28,366 nt of DNA, taken from a virus. The notes under the pieces were generated by a model. That model was not told the origin of the DNA and made no database searches. It was given only the letters and a program-made list of their open reading frames with translations. A program made the position numbers and the translations under genes. The DNA lies in IMG/VR virus record IMGVR_UViG_3300030450_000633, positions 1 through 28,366 of that record; one strand, written 5' to 3'. Below are positions 1-28,366 of this stretch, one piece after another; the stretch's first letter is position 1, and each line of letters opens with the position of its first letter.

Positions 1-104
1 TTCTTAATTCTAGCTTTGTTAAAAAGACAAAAGCTAACGATCAATTAATTCAATACACATTTGAAATAGAGAAAAGTAAAACATTAAGAACACAGAATAT
101 CTAA
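1..104 (+). CDS. C-terminal end of a tail structural protein (partial)
   Basis: The frame starting at base 3 is open to a TAA at 102-104 and encodes 33 residues, mostly charged and polar, ending in TLRTQNI. The stop shares its last A with the ATG of the next gene (TAATG), an arrangement used repeatedly in this genome, which supports it as a real gene end. The two bases before the frame complete the single base left over in the open gene at the right end (27529-28366), so this is probably the C terminus of that protein if the molecule is circular. On its own the fragment has no recognisable motif. Confidence 0.7.
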   Translation, partial: LNSSFVKKTKANDQLIQYTFEIEKSKTLRTQNI

Positions 105-12659: not shown

Positions 12660-12784
12660 AGAAACGAAAACTAAATAGCACAAATCCTAAGTATAACAAA
12701 ACACAAGAAAGTGAAGTTAAAATGCGTAAAGAATTTGTTAAAGAGGTTAAAGGGTGTAAAATCTATAAAACCTACTATCTCTAA
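12656..12784 (+). CDS. Possible small basic protein with GTG start
   Basis: A 42-aa frame opening with GTG inside the holin-like stop (GTGA). It is Lys-rich (VKKRKLNSTNPKYNK) and overlaps the N-terminal part of the DUF5675-like gene in another frame for 74 bases. The end-to-start coupling is its only support; the overlap and lack of motifs argue against it. One or other N terminus here may not be translated. Confidence 0.25.
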   Translation: MKKRKLNSTNPKYNKTQESEVKMRKEFVKEVKGCKIYKTYYL

Positions 12785-13193
12785 ATCCAATATCAATCTA
12801 TTAATTTTAAGGGAAACTTTTACTGATAATTCTACTATTGGTGAATTATTTTTAAATGGGGAAAAAATGTGCGACACTTTAGAGTTACCTTATAGAGATA
12901 ACCTAAAAAGCATTTCTTGTATTCCAATAGGGGAATATAAGGTTAGACTAAGATACGCAAGAGAAAGTGCAACAAGAGATTATTTGCACCTATTAGTACA
13001 AGAAGTAAAAGACCGTTCCTATATATTATTTCATAGGGGCAATTCAGCTAAAGATACAAGAGGATGTATCCTAGTAGGACTAGGAACTCAACAAGACTTT
13101 GTTAGTAATTCAACTTTAGCTTTGGAATTATTACTTAAAGAAATAATAAATTTGGGTGGCACAAATATTAATTTAATAATCAAAAATAAATAA
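12711..13193 (+). CDS. DUF5675-like protein, probable lysis/peptidoglycan-active protein
   Basis: A 160-aa frame; the conserved domain begins at about residue 28 (INLLILRETFTDNSTIGEL). The signature is YILFHRGNSAKDTRGCILVG around 104-123, with H108, G110, N111, D115 and C119, reminiscent of the His/Cys arrangement of L,D-transpeptidase-type folds. No ATG precedes the domain, so translation must start at GTG 12711 or a later TTG. Being between two holin-like genes, it is the best endolysin candidate in the genome; no classical lysozyme, amidase or peptidase is visible. The enzymatic activity of DUF5675 is not established to my knowledge. Confidence 0.6.
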   Translation: MKLKCVKNLLKRLKGVKSIKPTISKSNINLLILRETFTDNSTIGELFLNGEKMCDTLELPYRDNLKSISCIPIGEYKVRLRYARESATRDYLHLLVQEVKDRSYILFHRGNSAKDTRGCILVGLGTQQDFVSNSTLALELLLKEIINLGGTNINLIIKNK

Positions 13194-16066: not shown

Positions 16067-16444
16067 ATGGAAGTAAAAGGAAAACTAATTAAGAAGTTAC
16101 AAGCAGAATCAGGAACAAGTAAAGCAGGGAATGCTTGGGAAAACCAAACCTGTCTAGTAGAAACAGATGCTAAATTCAACAATATAGTGGCTGTTAAGTG
16201 TATAGGAGATAAGGTAAAGCAAATGAACAAACTTAATGAAGGCGATATGGTTACTATTAGCGTAAATGTTTATTCAAGAGAATACAATGGGAAATACTAT
16301 AACCAAATAGATGGCTGGTGGTTTGTTAATCAAAATGACAGTTCAGAATTTGCTAAGGAAGTAGAAAATGAGATAAAAGGTAGAAAAGAAATGGATATGC
16401 AAGACCATTTTGTTACTACTAATGATAACGATATGCCATTTTAA
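16067..16444 (+). CDS. Single-stranded DNA-binding-like protein (DUF3127-type OB fold)
   Basis: A 125-aa protein with the features of the Bacteroidota DUF3127 family: an N-terminal strand MEVKGKLIKKLQAESGTS, KAGNAWENQTCLVETD, a central GDKVKQMNKLNEGDMVTISV, and YSREYNGKYYNQIDGWWF. This is an OB-fold-like barrel. The C terminus ends NDNDMPF, an acidic tail closing in M-P-F that closely mimics the D-D-x-I-P-F tip bacterial SSB uses to recruit partners. It probably coats ssDNA during replication and recombination with the upstream protein. Confidence 0.7.
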   Translation: MEVKGKLIKKLQAESGTSKAGNAWENQTCLVETDAKFNNIVAVKCIGDKVKQMNKLNEGDMVTISVNVYSREYNGKYYNQIDGWWFVNQNDSSEFAKEVENEIKGRKEMDMQDHFVTTNDNDMPF

Positions 16445-20949: not shown

Positions 20950-21552
20950 ATGAAAAAACAAATAAAAATTTATAAAATCAAAGGAAATCCTAAAAACCCT
21001 AGATTGATTAAGGATCATAAATTCAAACAATTAGTTAAGTCTATTAAAGAGTTTCCTGAAATGCTTGAAAAAAGACCAATAGTTGTTGATGAAAATATGA
21101 TGGTCCTTGGTGGCAATATGAGATTAAAAGCAAGTAAAGATGCAGGGCTTAAAGAGGTTTGGGTAGATATAGCCGAAGGTTGGACACAAGAGCAAAAAGA
21201 TGAATTTGTAGTAAAAGACAATGTATCGTTTGGTGAATGGGATTGGACTATGTTGGCTAATGAGTGGGATAGTGAAAGCTTAAATGATTGGAGTTTAGAT
21301 GTGTGGCAAAATTATGATGACACTGTAAACAAAGTAAATAGAGGAGATGAAAATTCTGAATGGATTGGAGTGCCTGAATTTGAATCATCAGAAAATACTT
21401 TAAAAATCATAGTGCATTTTGAAAATGAAAAAGACAGGGAGGAGTTTACTAAGCAACACAACTTGCAATTTACAAAGAAAATGACTAATACTTGGATAAC
21501 TCATTACCCTTACGAAGGAAGAAAAGATATGAACTCATTATCTTATGAATAA
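20950..21552 (+). CDS. ParB/sulfiredoxin-fold nuclease-like protein
   Basis: A 200-aa protein. The N-terminal ~90 residues match the ParB N-terminal fold: KIKGNPKNPRLIKDHKFKQL with the N-P-R segment, KRPIVVDENMMVLGGNMRLK with the diagnostic G-G-N-x-R (54-58), and the following KASKDAGLKEVWVDI. A middle acidic region (GEWDWTMLANEWDSESL) leads to a C-terminal domain (about 150-190, TLKIIVHFENEKDREEFTKQ). ParB-type proteins of this size occur in phages next to DNA-modification and methylase genes rather than in plasmid partition. Its stop is overlapped by the glycosyltransferase gene by eight bases, so the two are made together and may act on the same DNA. Confidence 0.7.
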   Translation: MKKQIKIYKIKGNPKNPRLIKDHKFKQLVKSIKEFPEMLEKRPIVVDENMMVLGGNMRLKASKDAGLKEVWVDIAEGWTQEQKDEFVVKDNVSFGEWDWTMLANEWDSESLNDWSLDVWQNYDDTVNKVNRGDENSEWIGVPEFESSENTLKIIVHFENEKDREEFTKQHNLQFTKKMTNTWITHYPYEGRKDMNSLSYE

Positions 21553-22426
21553 ATATCCTGTTTATATAGTTTCTAAAGGAAGGTGGGAGAATCCTTTGAC
21601 AGCTAATATGTTTAAAAAAAACGGAATTGATTTTCAAATATTAGTTGAACCACAGGAGTATGAAAATTATTGTAATGCTTTAGGTGAAGAATATGTTACT
21701 AAACTACCATTCTCTAATTTAGGGGTAGGATCCTATCCTGCTAGAAATTTTGCTTGGGAAGATAGTATTAAAAATGGCTATACAAGACACTGGGTGTTTG
21801 ATGATAATATAAGAGCTTTTAGGAGAACACATAAAGGGAATAGAATTTTATGTAATGGTCTTAAAGCTATAAAAGTCCTAGAGGATTTTACTGACAGATA
21901 CGAAAATGTAGGTATTACAGGTTTTAACTATTCTACATTTGTAACCCCTAATACAAGCAAACCTTTTTATCTTAATGTACACGCTTATAGCGCTATGTTA
22001 ATGAAAAACAATATGCCTTATAGATGGAGATTAAAATACAATGAAGATGTTGATTTATGCTTACAAGTTTTAGACAATAAACTATGCACCCTTTTATTTA
22101 ATGCATTTTGTGTAGATAAAACTAGTACAGTTGCTAAAATGAAAGGTGGAAACCAAGATGAATTGTACTTAGGAAATGCTTATGAGAAAAAAGTTTTAAA
22201 GGCTAGATCACTTGAAGAAATATGGCCACAATATGCAGAAACTAGAATGGTATGGAATAGACCACATCACTATGTGAATTGGAGAAAACACTTTAAACAT
22301 AGTTTAGTAAGAAGAAAAGATATTGATTGGGATAAAATAAAAAACAAAAAAGATAATTTTAAACTAAAACAAGTAAAGGAAATTAAAAACAATACTTTAA
22401 AGAAATTTTATAAAGAAAACAAATGA
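21545..22426 (+). CDS. Glycosyltransferase, TET/JBP-associated (TAGT-like) type
   Basis: A 293-aa GT-A-type glycosyltransferase. Motifs in order: PVYIVSKGRWENPLTANMF (5-23), LVEPQEYENY (33-42), LPFSNLGVGSYPARNFAWED (54-73), RHWVFDDNIRAFRR (81-94) with the D-D-N metal site at 86-88, KYNEDVDLCLQVL (164-176) as probable catalytic acid region, and KMKGGNQDELY (198-208). This fits the family described as TET/JBP-associated glycosyltransferases, predicted to add sugar to oxidised DNA bases, as in base J. Donor is probably a UDP-sugar. It overlaps the ParB-like gene upstream and the epimerase downstream by four bases. The C-terminal ~60 residues are very basic, suiting nucleic-acid contact. A protein or glycan acceptor remains possible. 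Confidence 0.7.
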   Translation: MNKYPVYIVSKGRWENPLTANMFKKNGIDFQILVEPQEYENYCNALGEEYVTKLPFSNLGVGSYPARNFAWEDSIKNGYTRHWVFDDNIRAFRRTHKGNRILCNGLKAIKVLEDFTDRYENVGITGFNYSTFVTPNTSKPFYLNVHAYSAMLMKNNMPYRWRLKYNEDVDLCLQVLDNKLCTLLFNAFCVDKTSTVAKMKGGNQDELYLGNAYEKKVLKARSLEEIWPQYAETRMVWNRPHHYVNWRKHFKHSLVRRKDIDWDKIKNKKDNFKLKQVKEIKNNTLKKFYKENK

Positions 22427-23256
22427 AAATATTAGTAACAGGTGGTGCAGGATATGTAGGAAGTAATTTAATAAAACATTTAAAAAAACATACTAATGCT
22501 ACAATAACTTCTTTAGATAATTACTTTACAGGACAGGAATCAAATCACATTAAAGGTGTAGAGTATGTTCAGGATTGTAGTTGGGATATAAACAAGCTAC
22601 CTAAACAAGACATAGTTTATCATTTTGGAGAATACTCAAGAGTTGTGCCTTCATTTAAAGATGTAGATTATTTAATGACTAGCAACGCTTGGGGAACAAG
22701 CAGGGTAGTTGAACAATGCAAGAAGTGGGGATCTAAATTGATATATTCAGCATCTAGCTCTAAATTTGGTGGTAATGAAAACTTAAGCCCATATTCTTGG
22801 GTAAAAGCTAAAATGGTAGAATTAATTAAAAACTATTCTGAATGGTATGGATTAAAATATGAGATCTGTTATTTTTATAATGTATATGGAAAAAATCATA
22901 TATCAGAAGGAGATTATGCAACAGTAATAGGGATATTTGAAAAACAATACAAAGAAGGAAAAGCATTAACGGTTGTAGGGGATGGAAAACAAAGCCGACA
23001 ATTTACACACATTGATGATATTGTTAACGCCTTAAATAAAATAAGAAAGCAGGATCATAATAAAGAATGGTATTTAAGTGCTGATAAAGATTACAAGATA
23101 ATAGATGTTGCTAAAATGTTTACAGATAATATTGAATTTATTCCTGAAAGAAAAGGAGAGAGATATAAGGCTGTTACAATACCAAATGACACAAAAAAAA
23201 TATTAAAATGGGAGATAAAAAACGACTTAAAAACATACATAAATGGAACAAAATAG
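22423..23256 (+). CDS. NAD-dependent sugar epimerase/dehydratase (extended SDR)
   Basis: A 277-aa extended short-chain dehydrogenase. GGAGYVGSNL (7-16) is the NAD-binding glycine motif, IYSASSSKFGG (107-117) holds the catalytic Ser region, and YSWVK (124-128) is the Tyr-x3-Lys pair; FYNVYG and RQFTHIDDIVNAL follow as in UDP-glucose 4-epimerase (GalE)-type enzymes. It would convert a UDP- or dTDP-sugar. It shares the ATGA joint with the glycosyltransferase, so it most likely makes that enzyme's donor sugar. It overlaps the small terminase gene by 14 bases. Confidence 0.8.
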   Translation: MKILVTGGAGYVGSNLIKHLKKHTNATITSLDNYFTGQESNHIKGVEYVQDCSWDINKLPKQDIVYHFGEYSRVVPSFKDVDYLMTSNAWGTSRVVEQCKKWGSKLIYSASSSKFGGNENLSPYSWVKAKMVELIKNYSEWYGLKYEICYFYNVYGKNHISEGDYATVIGIFEKQYKEGKALTVVGDGKQSRQFTHIDDIVNALNKIRKQDHNKEWYLSADKDYKIIDVAKMFTDNIEFIPERKGERYKAVTIPNDTKKILKWEIKNDLKTYINGTK

Positions 23257-23596
23257 AACACAAATAGCAAAAAAAAGAATACTAGAAGCACTAGAGAAAA
23301 GTTTAGGTGTAGTGACAACAGCATTAAAAGCTACCGAATTATCAAGGACTAATTATTATAAATGGCTTAAAGAAGATGATGAGTTTGCAAATAAAGTAAT
23401 TGAAATTGAAAACATATCTAAGGATTTCGTGAAGTCAAAATACTACGAATGCGTAAAAGATAAGGTGCCATCAGTTGTAATACACGCAGCCAAAACTAAA
23501 TTAGGTTGGAATGAAACTAACAATATAGATATAACCTCAGGCAATAAACCTATCAATATGCCTGTTATAACATTTGTAGAAACTGATACTGAATAA
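23243..23596 (+). CDS. terS: Small terminase subunit
   Basis: A 117-aa protein with an N-terminal helix-turn-helix (LEALEKSLGVVTTALKATEL, then SRTNYYKWLKEDDEFANKVI), a central helix typical of TerS oligomerisation (FVKSKYYECVKDKVPSVVIH), AAKTKLGWNE, and a C-terminal tail (PINMPVITFVETDTE). This is the standard layout for Bacteroidota phage TerS. It binds the packaging site and hands DNA to the large subunit. The latter's reading frame overlaps its end in another frame. Confidence 0.75.
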   Translation: MEQNRTQIAKKRILEALEKSLGVVTTALKATELSRTNYYKWLKEDDEFANKVIEIENISKDFVKSKYYECVKDKVPSVVIHAAKTKLGWNETNNIDITSGNKPINMPVITFVETDTE

Positions 23597-24785
23597 AAAA
23601 TACAATCCTCTATTTGAATCCGATGCTCGTTATTTTATAATAACAGGAGGTAGAGGTTCAGGGAAATCATTTGCTGTAACAGTGTTTCTTACTTTACTTA
23701 CAATGACACAAGGTATTAGGATTCTTTTTACAAGATTCACAATGGTGTCAGCTCACTTGTCAATCATTCCAGAGTTCTTAGAAAAGATAAGTTTATTAGG
23801 GTTTGAAAATGTTTTTAGTATTAATAAAGCTGAAGTATTAAATTTAAGCAATAATTCCGACATACTATTTAGGGGGATCAAGACATCATCAGGAAATCAA
23901 ACAGCACGATTAAAATCACTACAAGGAATAAGTTGTTGGGTGTTAGATGAAGCAGAGGAATTAATTGAAGAAGATATATTTGATACTATTGATTTAAGTA
24001 TAAGAGAAAAAGATATACAAAATAGAGTGATCCTAATTCTTAATCCTGTAACAAAAGAACATTGGATCTACAAAAGGTTTTTTGAGGACAAAGGCGTAGA
24101 TGCTGGTTTTAATGGCGTTAAAGACAATATATGTTATATCCATAGTACATACCTAGACAATAAAGAAAACCTCTCTAAGAGCTTCCTAGAGCGCATTAAC
24201 AGTATAAAACATATTAATTTTAAAAAGTATCAACATAAAATACTTGGGGGGTGGCTTGATAAAGCAGAAGGTGTAGTATTTGACAATTGGAGTTTTGGTG
24301 AGTTTAATCCTGATGGGCTGCAAACTTCCTGCGGAATGGACTTTGGTTTTAGTATTGATCCTGATAGCTTAATAGAAGTTGCGATAGACAAAAAGAAACA
24401 AAGGATATATTTAAAAGAACACATATATCGTAATGGGTTAAAAAGTCAAGAGTTGGCTCAAATTGTATTAGACAAAATTGGAGATAAACTTGTTATAGCT
24501 GATAGTGCAGAACCAAGACTTATTGCAGACTTAAAGCATTTAGGAGTAAACATAAAACCTGTAAAAAAAGGAACTATTGAAAGTGGTGTAACAAGAATGC
24601 AAGATTATCATTTAGTAGTAACTCCTGAATCAACTAATATAGCTAAAGAATTAAACAATTATGTTTATGCAGACAAAGGTAGTAAATTATATGTAGATAG
24701 TTACAACCACGCTATTGATGGGATCCGTTACAATATTATATATCATTTAGACAATCCAAATGCAGGAAGATATTTTGTGCAATAA
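23583..24785 (+). CDS. terL: Large terminase subunit (ATPase/nuclease) with non-ATG start
   Basis: A 400-aa protein when read from CTG 23583. Walker A is GGRGSGKS (residues 22-29), Walker B is WVLDEAEE (119-126, D122/E123), and the RNase H-like nuclease carries acidic residues in CGMDFGFSIDPD (D253), VIADSAEPR (D307) and HAIDGIRY (D379). This is a complete PBSX/Terminase_3-type enzyme that packages DNA into the prohead. No ATG exists before Walker A: a stop lies at 23577-23579, and only CTG 23583, ATA 23586 and CTG 23589 can start it. The ATG- or GTG-based start at 23682 would delete the ATP-binding motif. The start overlaps the terS end, suggesting translational coupling. Confidence 0.9.
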   Translation: MILNKKYNPLFESDARYFIITGGRGSGKSFAVTVFLTLLTMTQGIRILFTRFTMVSAHLSIIPEFLEKISLLGFENVFSINKAEVLNLSNNSDILFRGIKTSSGNQTARLKSLQGISCWVLDEAEELIEEDIFDTIDLSIREKDIQNRVILILNPVTKEHWIYKRFFEDKGVDAGFNGVKDNICYIHSTYLDNKENLSKSFLERINSIKHINFKKYQHKILGGWLDKAEGVVFDNWSFGEFNPDGLQTSCGMDFGFSIDPDSLIEVAIDKKKQRIYLKEHIYRNGLKSQELAQIVLDKIGDKLVIADSAEPRLIADLKHLGVNIKPVKKGTIESGVTRMQDYHLVVTPESTNIAKELNNYVYADKGSKLYVDSYNHAIDGIRYNIIYHLDNPNAGRYFVQ

Positions 24786-27528: not shown

Positions 27529-28366
27529 ATGGCAAATTGTGTAATAGAGCAAACACCAGCATTTCAATTTTTCCCTGTAGGGCAAGATGTGATATTCGTG
27601 GTATCTAATAATGATGCAGTAGCAAATCAAATAAAAGTAAAATTCATAGCTGAAGTACATATAGCAGCCACACAACCAAACCCATCTTCTGTCAATGATA
27701 TTATTGGAACTTTTAAAACAACACCTAATAATGCAGGAGTTGGAATATTTAATTTAAGAAATGTATTAGAAAACTATGTTAAAGCAGATCACACAGCTTC
27801 TTCAAATGCCTTATTTAATGGTGCAACTCCTTCTGTTGATTTACCTGTGCATCTTATTGACGCCTTTTCTAAAAGCACAGATATTTTAAGACATTTGATT
27901 ATTCAATTTAAAGTAGAGTATTTAGACCAGGTTTCAGGTTCTTCTACTTTTGGACAGCTTATAACAACAGGCGCACAAAACACTTCGCCTTATAAATTTT
28001 GGAATGGATATGTTAAATATACAGATATTATTTCGGTTCATAGCTCAGGGAACTTTGGTTATAGTCCTAGTGACTTTTTTCCTGGTAACGCAACACGAAG
28101 ATACCTTACAAATGCACCGACAACTCAATATGCGAATGTGGAAGATTATGGAACACTAGCATTTATGACACTTACTGCTGCTCAAAGAACATTAACTTTT
28201 GAAGTAAAAATAACTGCTTATAATGCTTCAGGTTCGGCTTATGGAACAACCAATGATATAGCTATGAGTATTGCCAATGGCTCTTATGCTGTTTGGAATG
28301 ATGAAGCTGAAAGACAATTAGTTTATCTTGCTGCTTTTCCTGCAAATTTACAAGGTACTTGGTGGG
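27529..28366 (+). CDS. Tail structural protein, cut by window end
   Basis: A frame of 279 codons from ATG 27529 with no stop before the end. It is beta-rich, without membrane segments; N terminus MANCVIEQTPAFQFFPVGQD; then VGIFNLRNVLENYVKADH and a body with NTSPYKFWNGYVKYTDI. It follows the gp10-like gene and, across the ends of the window, would precede the 951-aa tail protein. One base (G) remains after the last full codon; with TT at 1-2 it forms GTT, and the frame at base 3 continues for 33 codons to a stop at 104, giving about 313 residues. Role in the distal tail is inferred from neighbours. Confidence 0.65.
   Translation, partial: MANCVIEQTPAFQFFPVGQDVIFVVSNNDAVANQIKVKFIAEVHIAATQPNPSSVNDIIGTFKTTPNNAGVGIFNLRNVLENYVKADHTASSNALFNGATPSVDLPVHLIDAFSKSTDILRHLIIQFKVEYLDQVSGSSTFGQLITTGAQNTSPYKFWNGYVKYTDIISVHSSGNFGYSPSDFFPGNATRRYLTNAPTTQYANVEDYGTLAFMTLTAAQRTLTFEVKITAYNASGSAYGTTNDIAMSIANGSYAVWNDEAERQLVYLAAFPANLQGTWW

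What the first reader, a model, noticed from the sequence alone, without database searches (positions are those of the whole stretch)
20950..23256. ParB-like + TAGT-type glycosyltransferase + sugar epimerase module with no visible base hydroxylase
Seen: three genes in tight overlap encode a ParB-fold protein (G-G-N-x-R at 54-58), a glycosyltransferase with the S-N-L-G-x-G-S-x-P-A-R-N and F-D-D-N motifs of the TET/JBP-associated type, and an SDR epimerase with an intact Y-x3-K. Known: that glycosyltransferase family is predicted to glycosylate oxidised bases in DNA. Inference: the epimerase makes the donor, the glycosyltransferase transfers it, and the ParB protein guides or follows the reaction. 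The odd point is that this apparently complete genome has no recognisable TET/JBP dioxygenase, thymidylate-synthase-like hydroxymethylase or kinase to create the acceptor. Either an unknown gene here or the host supplies it, or the acceptor is not DNA.
Basis: partly seen in the sequence, partly recalled or inferred. Interest (0 to 1): 0.7.

Follow-up and report, generated by a model that had tools for sequence, protein, structure and literature searches.

The report
ParB-linked phage sugar-transfer module
A small marine phage carries a sugar-transferring enzyme of a family known to decorate viral DNA, together with a ParB-like partner whose tail is an undescribed domain found next to (or fused to) this enzyme in about a hundred independent phage lineages, yet these phages lack any known gene that would prepare the DNA for the sugar.

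Summary
Three overlapping genes encode a ParB/Srx-fold protein (20950-21552), a TAGT-family GT-A glycosyltransferase (21545-22426; PF20691, E 5.6e-41) and an intact extended SDR (22423-23256), directly before terS-terL. The contig ends are two pieces of one gene, so the genome is nearly complete (about 0.5 kb missing). No TET/JBP, thymidylate-synthase-type hydroxymethylase or 2OG oxygenase was found in it.

The main new result is a ~70-aa C-terminal domain on the ParB protein (W-x-x-MPEF ... F-x-N-E-x-D ... K-[ST]-x-W-x-x-YP). I scanned IMG/VR for short DNA motifs of this domain alone. All 105 independent domain clusters have a TAGT: 9 fused to it, 86 adjacent, 10 one gene away. The domain occurs standalone, on ParB, or at the N-terminus of TAGT. 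It is absent from Pfam and NCBIfam, apart from one marginal unknown PHROG.

These TAGTs form one clade apart from TET-linked TAGTs. None of 49 records (2.9 Mb) has TET/JBP; three have thymidylate synthase.

Most likely the module glycosylates phage DNA, with ParB plus this domain as targeting subunit. The acceptor is unknown, and protein glycosylation is not excluded. Two cultured Vibrio phages carry the domain-TAGT fusion without TET or TS and would settle it.

The parts
20950..21552 (+). ParB-like protein, 200 aa: ParB/Srx-fold N-terminal domain plus C-terminal TAGT-partner domain
20950..21324 (+). ParB/Srx core (residues 1-125), GGNMR at 54-58, VKDN at 88-91; no helix-turn-helix region as in partition ParB
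   Evidence: AF2 model pLDDT about 90 over residues 1-90; Foldseek best hit M. xanthus ParB with CTPgammaS 7bnr, E 2e-5
21349..21549 (+). TAGT-partner domain (residues 134-200), undescribed: EW-x-G-x-PEF ... KIIVHF-x-NE-x-DR-x-x-F ... TW-x-x-x-YP
   Evidence: HMM built from standalone homologues hits it at E 8.5e-9, against best of 200 shuffles 0.45; profile match to the N-terminal extension of T4-like TAGTs, 96.4% probability, P 1.3e-9; blind motif scans
21545..22426 (+). TAGT-family GT-A glycosyltransferase, 293 aa
   Evidence: PF20691 E 5.6e-41; phrog_842 E 2.4e-32; conserved D86 D87, E167 D168, R67, GG201-202 shared with phage T6 TAGT
21797..21808 (+). FDDN motif (DXD-type metal/donor site) of TAGT
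   Evidence: D86 and D87 conserved throughout 236 aligned TAGTs including T6
22423..23256 (+). extended SDR nucleotide-sugar epimerase/dehydratase, intact GGAGYVG and YSWVK
   Evidence: (best solved relative UDP-glucose 4-epimerase 4zrm, E 9.5e-19)
23243..23596 (+). terminase small subunit-like gene that follows the module
   Evidence: phrog_4044 E 5e-5; same place in relatives
23682..24785 (+). terminase large subunit (reading frame is open further upstream, with a Walker A GGRGSGKS before this start)
3..103 (+). C-terminal end of the structural gene whose beginning lies at 27529-28365
   Evidence: residues 438-468 of the L007 homologue, 74% identical
27529..28365 (+). N-terminal part of the same structural gene; shows the contig is a nearly complete, permuted genome
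   Evidence: residues 1-275 of the same L007 ORF

Best explanation
The module is a phage DNA-glycosylation system in which TAGT is the catalytic subunit and the ParB-like protein is its dedicated targeting subunit. The partner domain at the ParB C-terminus docks TAGT (inferred from fusion and linkage; not shown biochemically). The ParB/Srx domain, a nucleotide-binding fold, holds the complex on phage DNA (inferred from the fold and from ParB relatives fused to DNA methylases). The SDR tailors the nucleotide-sugar donor (inferred from family). The sugar is added to phage DNA before packaging as anti-restriction protection. The acceptor position is unknown: neither this phage nor its relatives encode TET/JBP or, mostly, a TS-type hydroxymethylase, so the acceptor is made by an unrecognised route, by the host, or the base is glycosylated directly.
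For: TAGT family match. T6 TAGT adds a second glucose to glucosyl-hmC in DNA (PMC13216743), and catalytic-type residues are shared with T6. ParB fold related to CTP-binding ParB. Closest annotated phage ParBs are often ParB-DNA methylase fusions, and L065 has such a fusion right after its TAGT. The partner domain lies on ParB, fused to TAGT, or standalone next to TAGT in 105 of 105 blind-scan clusters. ParB-TAGT linkage is kept across divergent phage backbones with terL as low as 27% identical, and sits before terminase. Donor-sugar genes recur near the module: SDR in 25 clusters, UDP-sugar dehydrogenase in 9. T4-like phages, where hmC-type pathways are known, carry the domain-TAGT fusion (PTm1 has TS-like genes).
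Against: No recognisable enzyme makes a hydroxylated base in the window or in most of 49 related records. The GT-A model also resembles protein glycosyltransferases such as COLGALT1 and POMGNT1, so structure does not favour DNA. FkbM-type methyltransferases and capsular-type glycosyltransferases in sister cassettes are also typical of protein or polysaccharide glycan pathways. No direct chemical evidence exists. The partner domain could be a substrate or chaperone rather than a docking domain.
Confidence: 0.58

Rival explanations
1. Protein glycosylation: TAGT, with its partner domain, glycosylates a virion or host protein, possibly the partner domain itself, and the ParB fold only binds a nucleotide or the substrate.
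For: No base hydroxylase in the clade. Best structural matches include the collagen hydroxylysine galactosyltransferase and other protein glycosyltransferases. Cassettes with extra glycosyltransferases and FkbM methyltransferases. The partner domain has conserved T/S/W residues.
Against: The family's only demonstrated activity cited here is on DNA (PMC13216743). ParB core is closest to ParB-DNA methylase fusions. The module sits in the replication/packaging region, not with tail genes. GT-A fold similarity is generic.
Confidence: 0.22
2. A sub-case of the DNA reading: DNA glycosylation on a base hydroxylated by host metabolism or by a phage enzyme of an unrecognised family (as opposed to direct glycosylation).
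For: Several window ORFs of the replication region match nothing. Families searched cover only known hydroxylases.
Against: No neighbour family recurs as a plausible hydroxylase across 139 clusters. A host route would have to exist in many different hosts.
Confidence: 0.35
3. Host surface or capsular glycan modification (serotype conversion or superinfection exclusion).
For: SDR, Gly_transf_sug-type and FkbM-type genes occur in such islands.
Against: TAGT rather than a membrane glycosyltransferase; ParB-linked; fixed position before terS-terL; I saw no membrane flippase partner in the Pfam results.
Confidence: 0.06
4. ParB is an ordinary partition or nuclease protein that merely sits beside TAGT.
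For: ParB_N family and fold.
Against: Its C-terminal domain is the TAGT-partner domain and is never seen away from TAGT; no ParA in Pfam results; no HTH apparent in the model.
Confidence: 0.04

Closest known systems
TAGT / beta-glucosyl-HMC-alpha-glucosyltransferase of phage T6 (PF20691, YP_010067197)
   Same: Same Pfam family (PMC13216743); conserved S10, R13, Y42, G62, R67, W83, D86 D87, E167 D168, GG201-202
   Different: Only 19% identical (44 of 228 aligned); T6 has a thymidylate-synthase-family gene next door and its enzyme acts after an alpha-glucosyltransferase (PMC13216743). The window has none of these, but has a ParB-partner protein and an SDR.
TET/JBP-TAGT cassette, e.g. Nonlabens phage P12024L gp26-gp28
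   Same: TAGT family; marine Bacteroidetes phage with similar genome layout
   Different: TET/JBP present there (PF12851 E 2.8e-29); its TAGT is only 29% identical; TET-linked TAGT loci have neither partner domain nor ParB and form their own clade
N-terminally extended TAGTs of Vibrio phages 1.124.O and 1.076.O, Tenacibaculum phage PTm1, Pectobacterium phage POP12
   Same: Their N-terminal extension is the same partner domain
   Different: Domain fused to TAGT rather than to ParB; no annotated ParB or SDR next to it in the regions read
Phage ParB-DNA methylase fusions (phrog_498 and relatives)
   Same: Same ParB/Srx domain type, E 4.8e-24, coupled to a DNA-modifying enzyme
   Different: Effector is a methylase in the same chain, not a separate glycosyltransferase
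Arabinosylation cluster of Mosigvirus (RB69 type) in Straboviridae
   Same: Dedicated sugar-donor genes beside a DNA glycosyltransferase (PMC13390438)
   Different: Those make a 5-hydroxy-dCMP precursor with a TS-superfamily synthase, absent here

Membership tests
TAGT glycosyltransferase (PF20691) | Profile score above the curated cut-off | tested here: met
   141.2 bits against 27.5
TAGT glycosyltransferase (PF20691) | GT-A catalytic signature (DXD-type site) intact and shared with an experimentally active member | tested here: met
   D86 D87, E167 D168, R67 conserved across 236 sequences including T6
TAGT glycosyltransferase (PF20691) | GT-A fold | tested here: met
   Modelled on homologous fusion L300, GT part pLDDT mostly above 90; Foldseek GT-A hits E 1e-5. 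The window protein itself was not modelled.
TAGT glycosyltransferase (PF20691) | Acts on DNA | not testable with these tools
   Needs mass spectrometry or in vitro assay
TET/JBP-linked base hypermodification system | TET/JBP dioxygenase in the genome | tested here: not met
   No PF12851 match at E up to 10 in the window; 0 of 49 related records, found in comparison phage P12024L
T-even type pathway (hydroxymethylase plus alpha/beta-GT plus TAGT) | TS-family hydroxymethylase and AGT/BGT | tested here: not met
   PF00303 none at E up to 10; no AGT/BGT in Pfam scans of window ORFs
ParB/Srx fold | Fold and NPR / GGxxR nucleotide-site motifs | tested here: met
   Foldseek 7bnr E 2e-5, prob 1.00; N16, R18, G55, D90, N91 conserved; Pfam score slightly under cut-off
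ParB partition protein | HTH parS-binding domain, C-terminal dimer domain, ParA partner | tested here: not met
   No HTH apparent in the model; C-terminus is the TAGT-partner domain; no ParA among Pfam hits
Extended SDR sugar epimerase/dehydratase | GxxGxxG-type NAD site and YxxxK | tested here: met
UDP-glucose 4-epimerase (specific function) | Equivalog-level score | tested here: not met
   galE TIGR01179 50 bits against 262 cut-off; no equivalog reached

The most novel reading that the evidence does not exclude
Domain-linked TAGTs are a separate DNA-glycosylation system that needs no prior base hydroxylation: the ParB/partner-domain protein presents an unmodified DNA position (for example an exocyclic amine or another group) to TAGT, giving a class of sugar-modified DNA not yet seen, widespread in marine phages.
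Probability: 0.17. Interest if true: 0.88.

Novelty: new variant of a known kind. Interest (0 to 1): 0.6.

Why it matters
Solitary TAGTs without alpha- or beta-glucosyltransferase are already counted as an unexplained group (288 of 753 phage genomes, PMC13216743). This work ties one large clade of them to an obligate, apparently undescribed partner domain and, in about 40% of lineages, to a ParB-like protein. It also shows the clade lacks TET/JBP and mostly lacks TS, so the textbook hydroxylate-then-glycosylate route does not explain it. Cultured Vibrio phages with the domain-TAGT fusion make the question directly testable, with possible new DNA bases and anti-restriction chemistry as the outcome.

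Tried and rejected
Hidden dioxygenase in the window: Pfam on nearly all forward-strand ORFs of 70 aa or more, plus six-frame searches for PF12851, PF00303 and PF13640, gave nothing. A recurrent neighbour enzyme that could make the acceptor: the most common unannotated neighbours were, by my own reading, replication-type proteins and an AAA ATPase. The 2013 paper defining TAGT is not held, so I could not check whether it mentions the ParB linkage or the small domain. Prophages with close relatives: only two distant alphaproteobacterial hits at about 40%. PDB sequence search for TAGT: none. The AF2 model of the fusion has low confidence in the partner domain (pLDDT 33-54 in much of residues 1-80), so no docking claim is made from it.

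Full report
OBSERVATION. The window is an entire IMG/VR record of 28,366 bases. ORFs 20950-21552, 21545-22426 and 22423-23256 overlap by 8 and 4 bp and run with a 14 bp overlap into a terS-like gene, then terL. The glycosyltransferase is a clear TAGT (PF20691, 141 bits against a cut-off of 27.5; phrog_842 'beta-glucosyl-HMC-alpha-glucosyltransferase' E 2.4e-32). The SDR has both catalytic motifs; its specificity cannot be named, because no NCBIfam equivalog reaches its cut-off and the closest solved structure is a UDP-glucose 4-epimerase. The first protein is ParB/Srx: marginal in Pfam, strong in PHROGs, with an AlphaFold model whose core matches CTP-bound ParB of Myxococcus (7bnr, E 2e-5).

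GENOME COMPLETENESS. The first-stage reader called the genome apparently complete. No terminal repeats exist, but the last ORF (27529-28365) matches residues 1-275 of a 468-aa protein in L007, and the first 33 codons of the window match residues 438-468 of the same protein (43% and 74% identity; L009 gives the same picture). The contig is therefore a permuted genome lacking roughly 0.5 kb inside one structural gene, assuming that gene has the same length here. This makes the absence of a hydroxylase meaningful.

NO HYDROXYLASE. Pfam on the window proteins and six-frame searches with TET/JBP, thymidylate synthase (both at E up to 10) and 2OG-FeII_Oxy_3 found none. In 49 related records totalling 2.88 Mb (sum), all with TAGT, TET/JBP is in none, TS in three (L130's record, Vibrio phage henriette, Tenacibaculum phage PTm1), C5-methylase in two, and 2OG-FeII_Oxy_3 in two. 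The only TET hit was the added comparison phage P12024L. Many of these records are fragments, so individual absences are weak, but the overall pattern is not.

RELATIVES. 358 IMG/VR stretches encode relatives of the window TAGT; 80 were fetched. ParB is directly upstream in essentially all complete neighbourhoods. Between ParB and TAGT, many relatives insert an exchangeable gene: a second TAGT (L016, L038, L051, L060), a glycosyltransferase with a weak Gly_transf_sug match (L009, L023, L031), a Gly_transf_sug/capsular-type glycosyltransferase (L042, L066; in L044 and L052 it follows TAGT), an FkbM-type methyltransferase (L012, L018), or another SAM methyltransferase (L040). The SDR follows TAGT in part of the loci. 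So ParB-TAGT is the constant core, and donor or elaborating enzymes are exchanged. This linkage survives on phage backbones whose terL is only 27-36% identical.

THE PARTNER DOMAIN. The ParB C-terminus (residues 134-200) is a conserved domain. Reading N-terminally extended TAGTs of T4-like and Vibrio phages, I saw the same motifs, and profile comparison confirmed it: 96.4% probability, P 1.3e-9. An HMM built from the standalone small proteins found 187 domain ORFs in these loci. After clustering at 70% identity there are 105 clusters: 9 fused to TAGT, 86 adjacent (under 100 bp), 10 one gene away, none without TAGT. Loci with only a chance motif match lack TAGT, except five of 51; in at least two of these (L175, L311) a split or diverged domain is visible. 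In separate genes the domain lies upstream of TAGT in 85 of 96 clusters, the same order as in the fusions. The HMM finds the window ParB at E 8.5e-9; the best of 200 shuffles scores 0.45. Representatives have no Pfam or credible NCBIfam match and only a marginal match to an unknown 66-residue PHROG. Of 139 lineages (TAGT clustered at 80%), 63 have the standalone domain, 57 the ParB fusion, 13 the TAGT fusion and 6 other forms.

SEPARATE FROM THE TET SYSTEM. In 19 TET loci related to P12024L, those with a TAGT beside the TET have no partner domain and no ParB. In a FastTree phylogeny, the domain-linked TAGTs group together (support 0.993) apart from TET-linked TAGTs and T6; a few loci fall outside, which I attribute to the nearest TAGT chosen being the second, paralogous copy. 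The name 'TET-associated' therefore does not describe this clade.

MECHANISM. Shown: gene order, family membership, intact catalytic motifs, the partner domain and its obligate linkage, lack of known hydroxylases. Inferred: the domain docks TAGT (Rosetta-stone logic); ParB/Srx places the complex on DNA; the SDR supplies the donor; DNA is the target. The DNA reading rests on T6 TAGT acting on glucosyl-hmC DNA (PMC13216743), on the closest annotated relatives of this ParB often being ParB-DNA methylase fusions, and on the place of the module before the terminase. A ParB/Srx-fold subunit (GmrS) is also part of the GmrSD enzymes that attack glucosylated DNA (PMC4619093), which shows that the fold can work in that context but is not evidence for this protein. 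The GT-A model does not separate DNA from protein acceptors.

VERDICT. It is a new variant of a known kind (phage TAGT-type glycosylation). The open question, what the acceptor is, is testable now in cultured phages.

Noticed in passing
window 23583-23681: The terL reading frame is open upstream of the listed GTG start and contains the Walker A motif GGRGSGKS, so the gene starts earlier, probably at a non-ATG codon just before or at the end of terS.
   Followed up: partly
L322:7743-10828 (Marivivens donghaensis contig): A bacterial contig holds a TAGT with a long N-terminal extension beside a 575-aa protein that looks like a second glycosyltransferase, followed by an integrase-like gene; a possible integrated phage or element.
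   Followed up: no
L211:4503-4964, L055:1264-1812, L051:5644-6183, L043:8048-8506 and others: A small conserved protein 'MNIF-x-L ... NKHVVKM-x-LE-x-AQ' recurs near TAGT modules in 8 lineages; not identified here.
   Followed up: no
L079:2644-3450: A C5-cytosine-methylase-like gene (my reading of the sequence) lies directly downstream of this relative's TAGT, the only such arrangement seen.
   Followed up: no
L065:1730-4540: ParB-partner protein, TAGT and a ParB-DNA methylase fusion lie in a row: both kinds of ParB-coupled modification in one cassette.
   Followed up: partly
Tenacibaculum phage PTm1 NC_049340 123231-123866: A weak thymidylate-synthase-family match with one in-frame TAA, beside a full one elsewhere in the genome.
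   Followed up: no
control genome Bacteroides ihuae: PF20691 (TAGT) rings above cut-off in this control bacterial genome, so TAGT occurs in cellular or prophage DNA of Bacteroides.
   Followed up: no
window 12711-13193 and 16067-16444: DUF5675 and DUF3127 (annotated as single-strand DNA binding protein in P12024L) genes are in a layout similar to Nonlabens phage P12024L, suggesting a Bacteroidetes host.
   Followed up: partly
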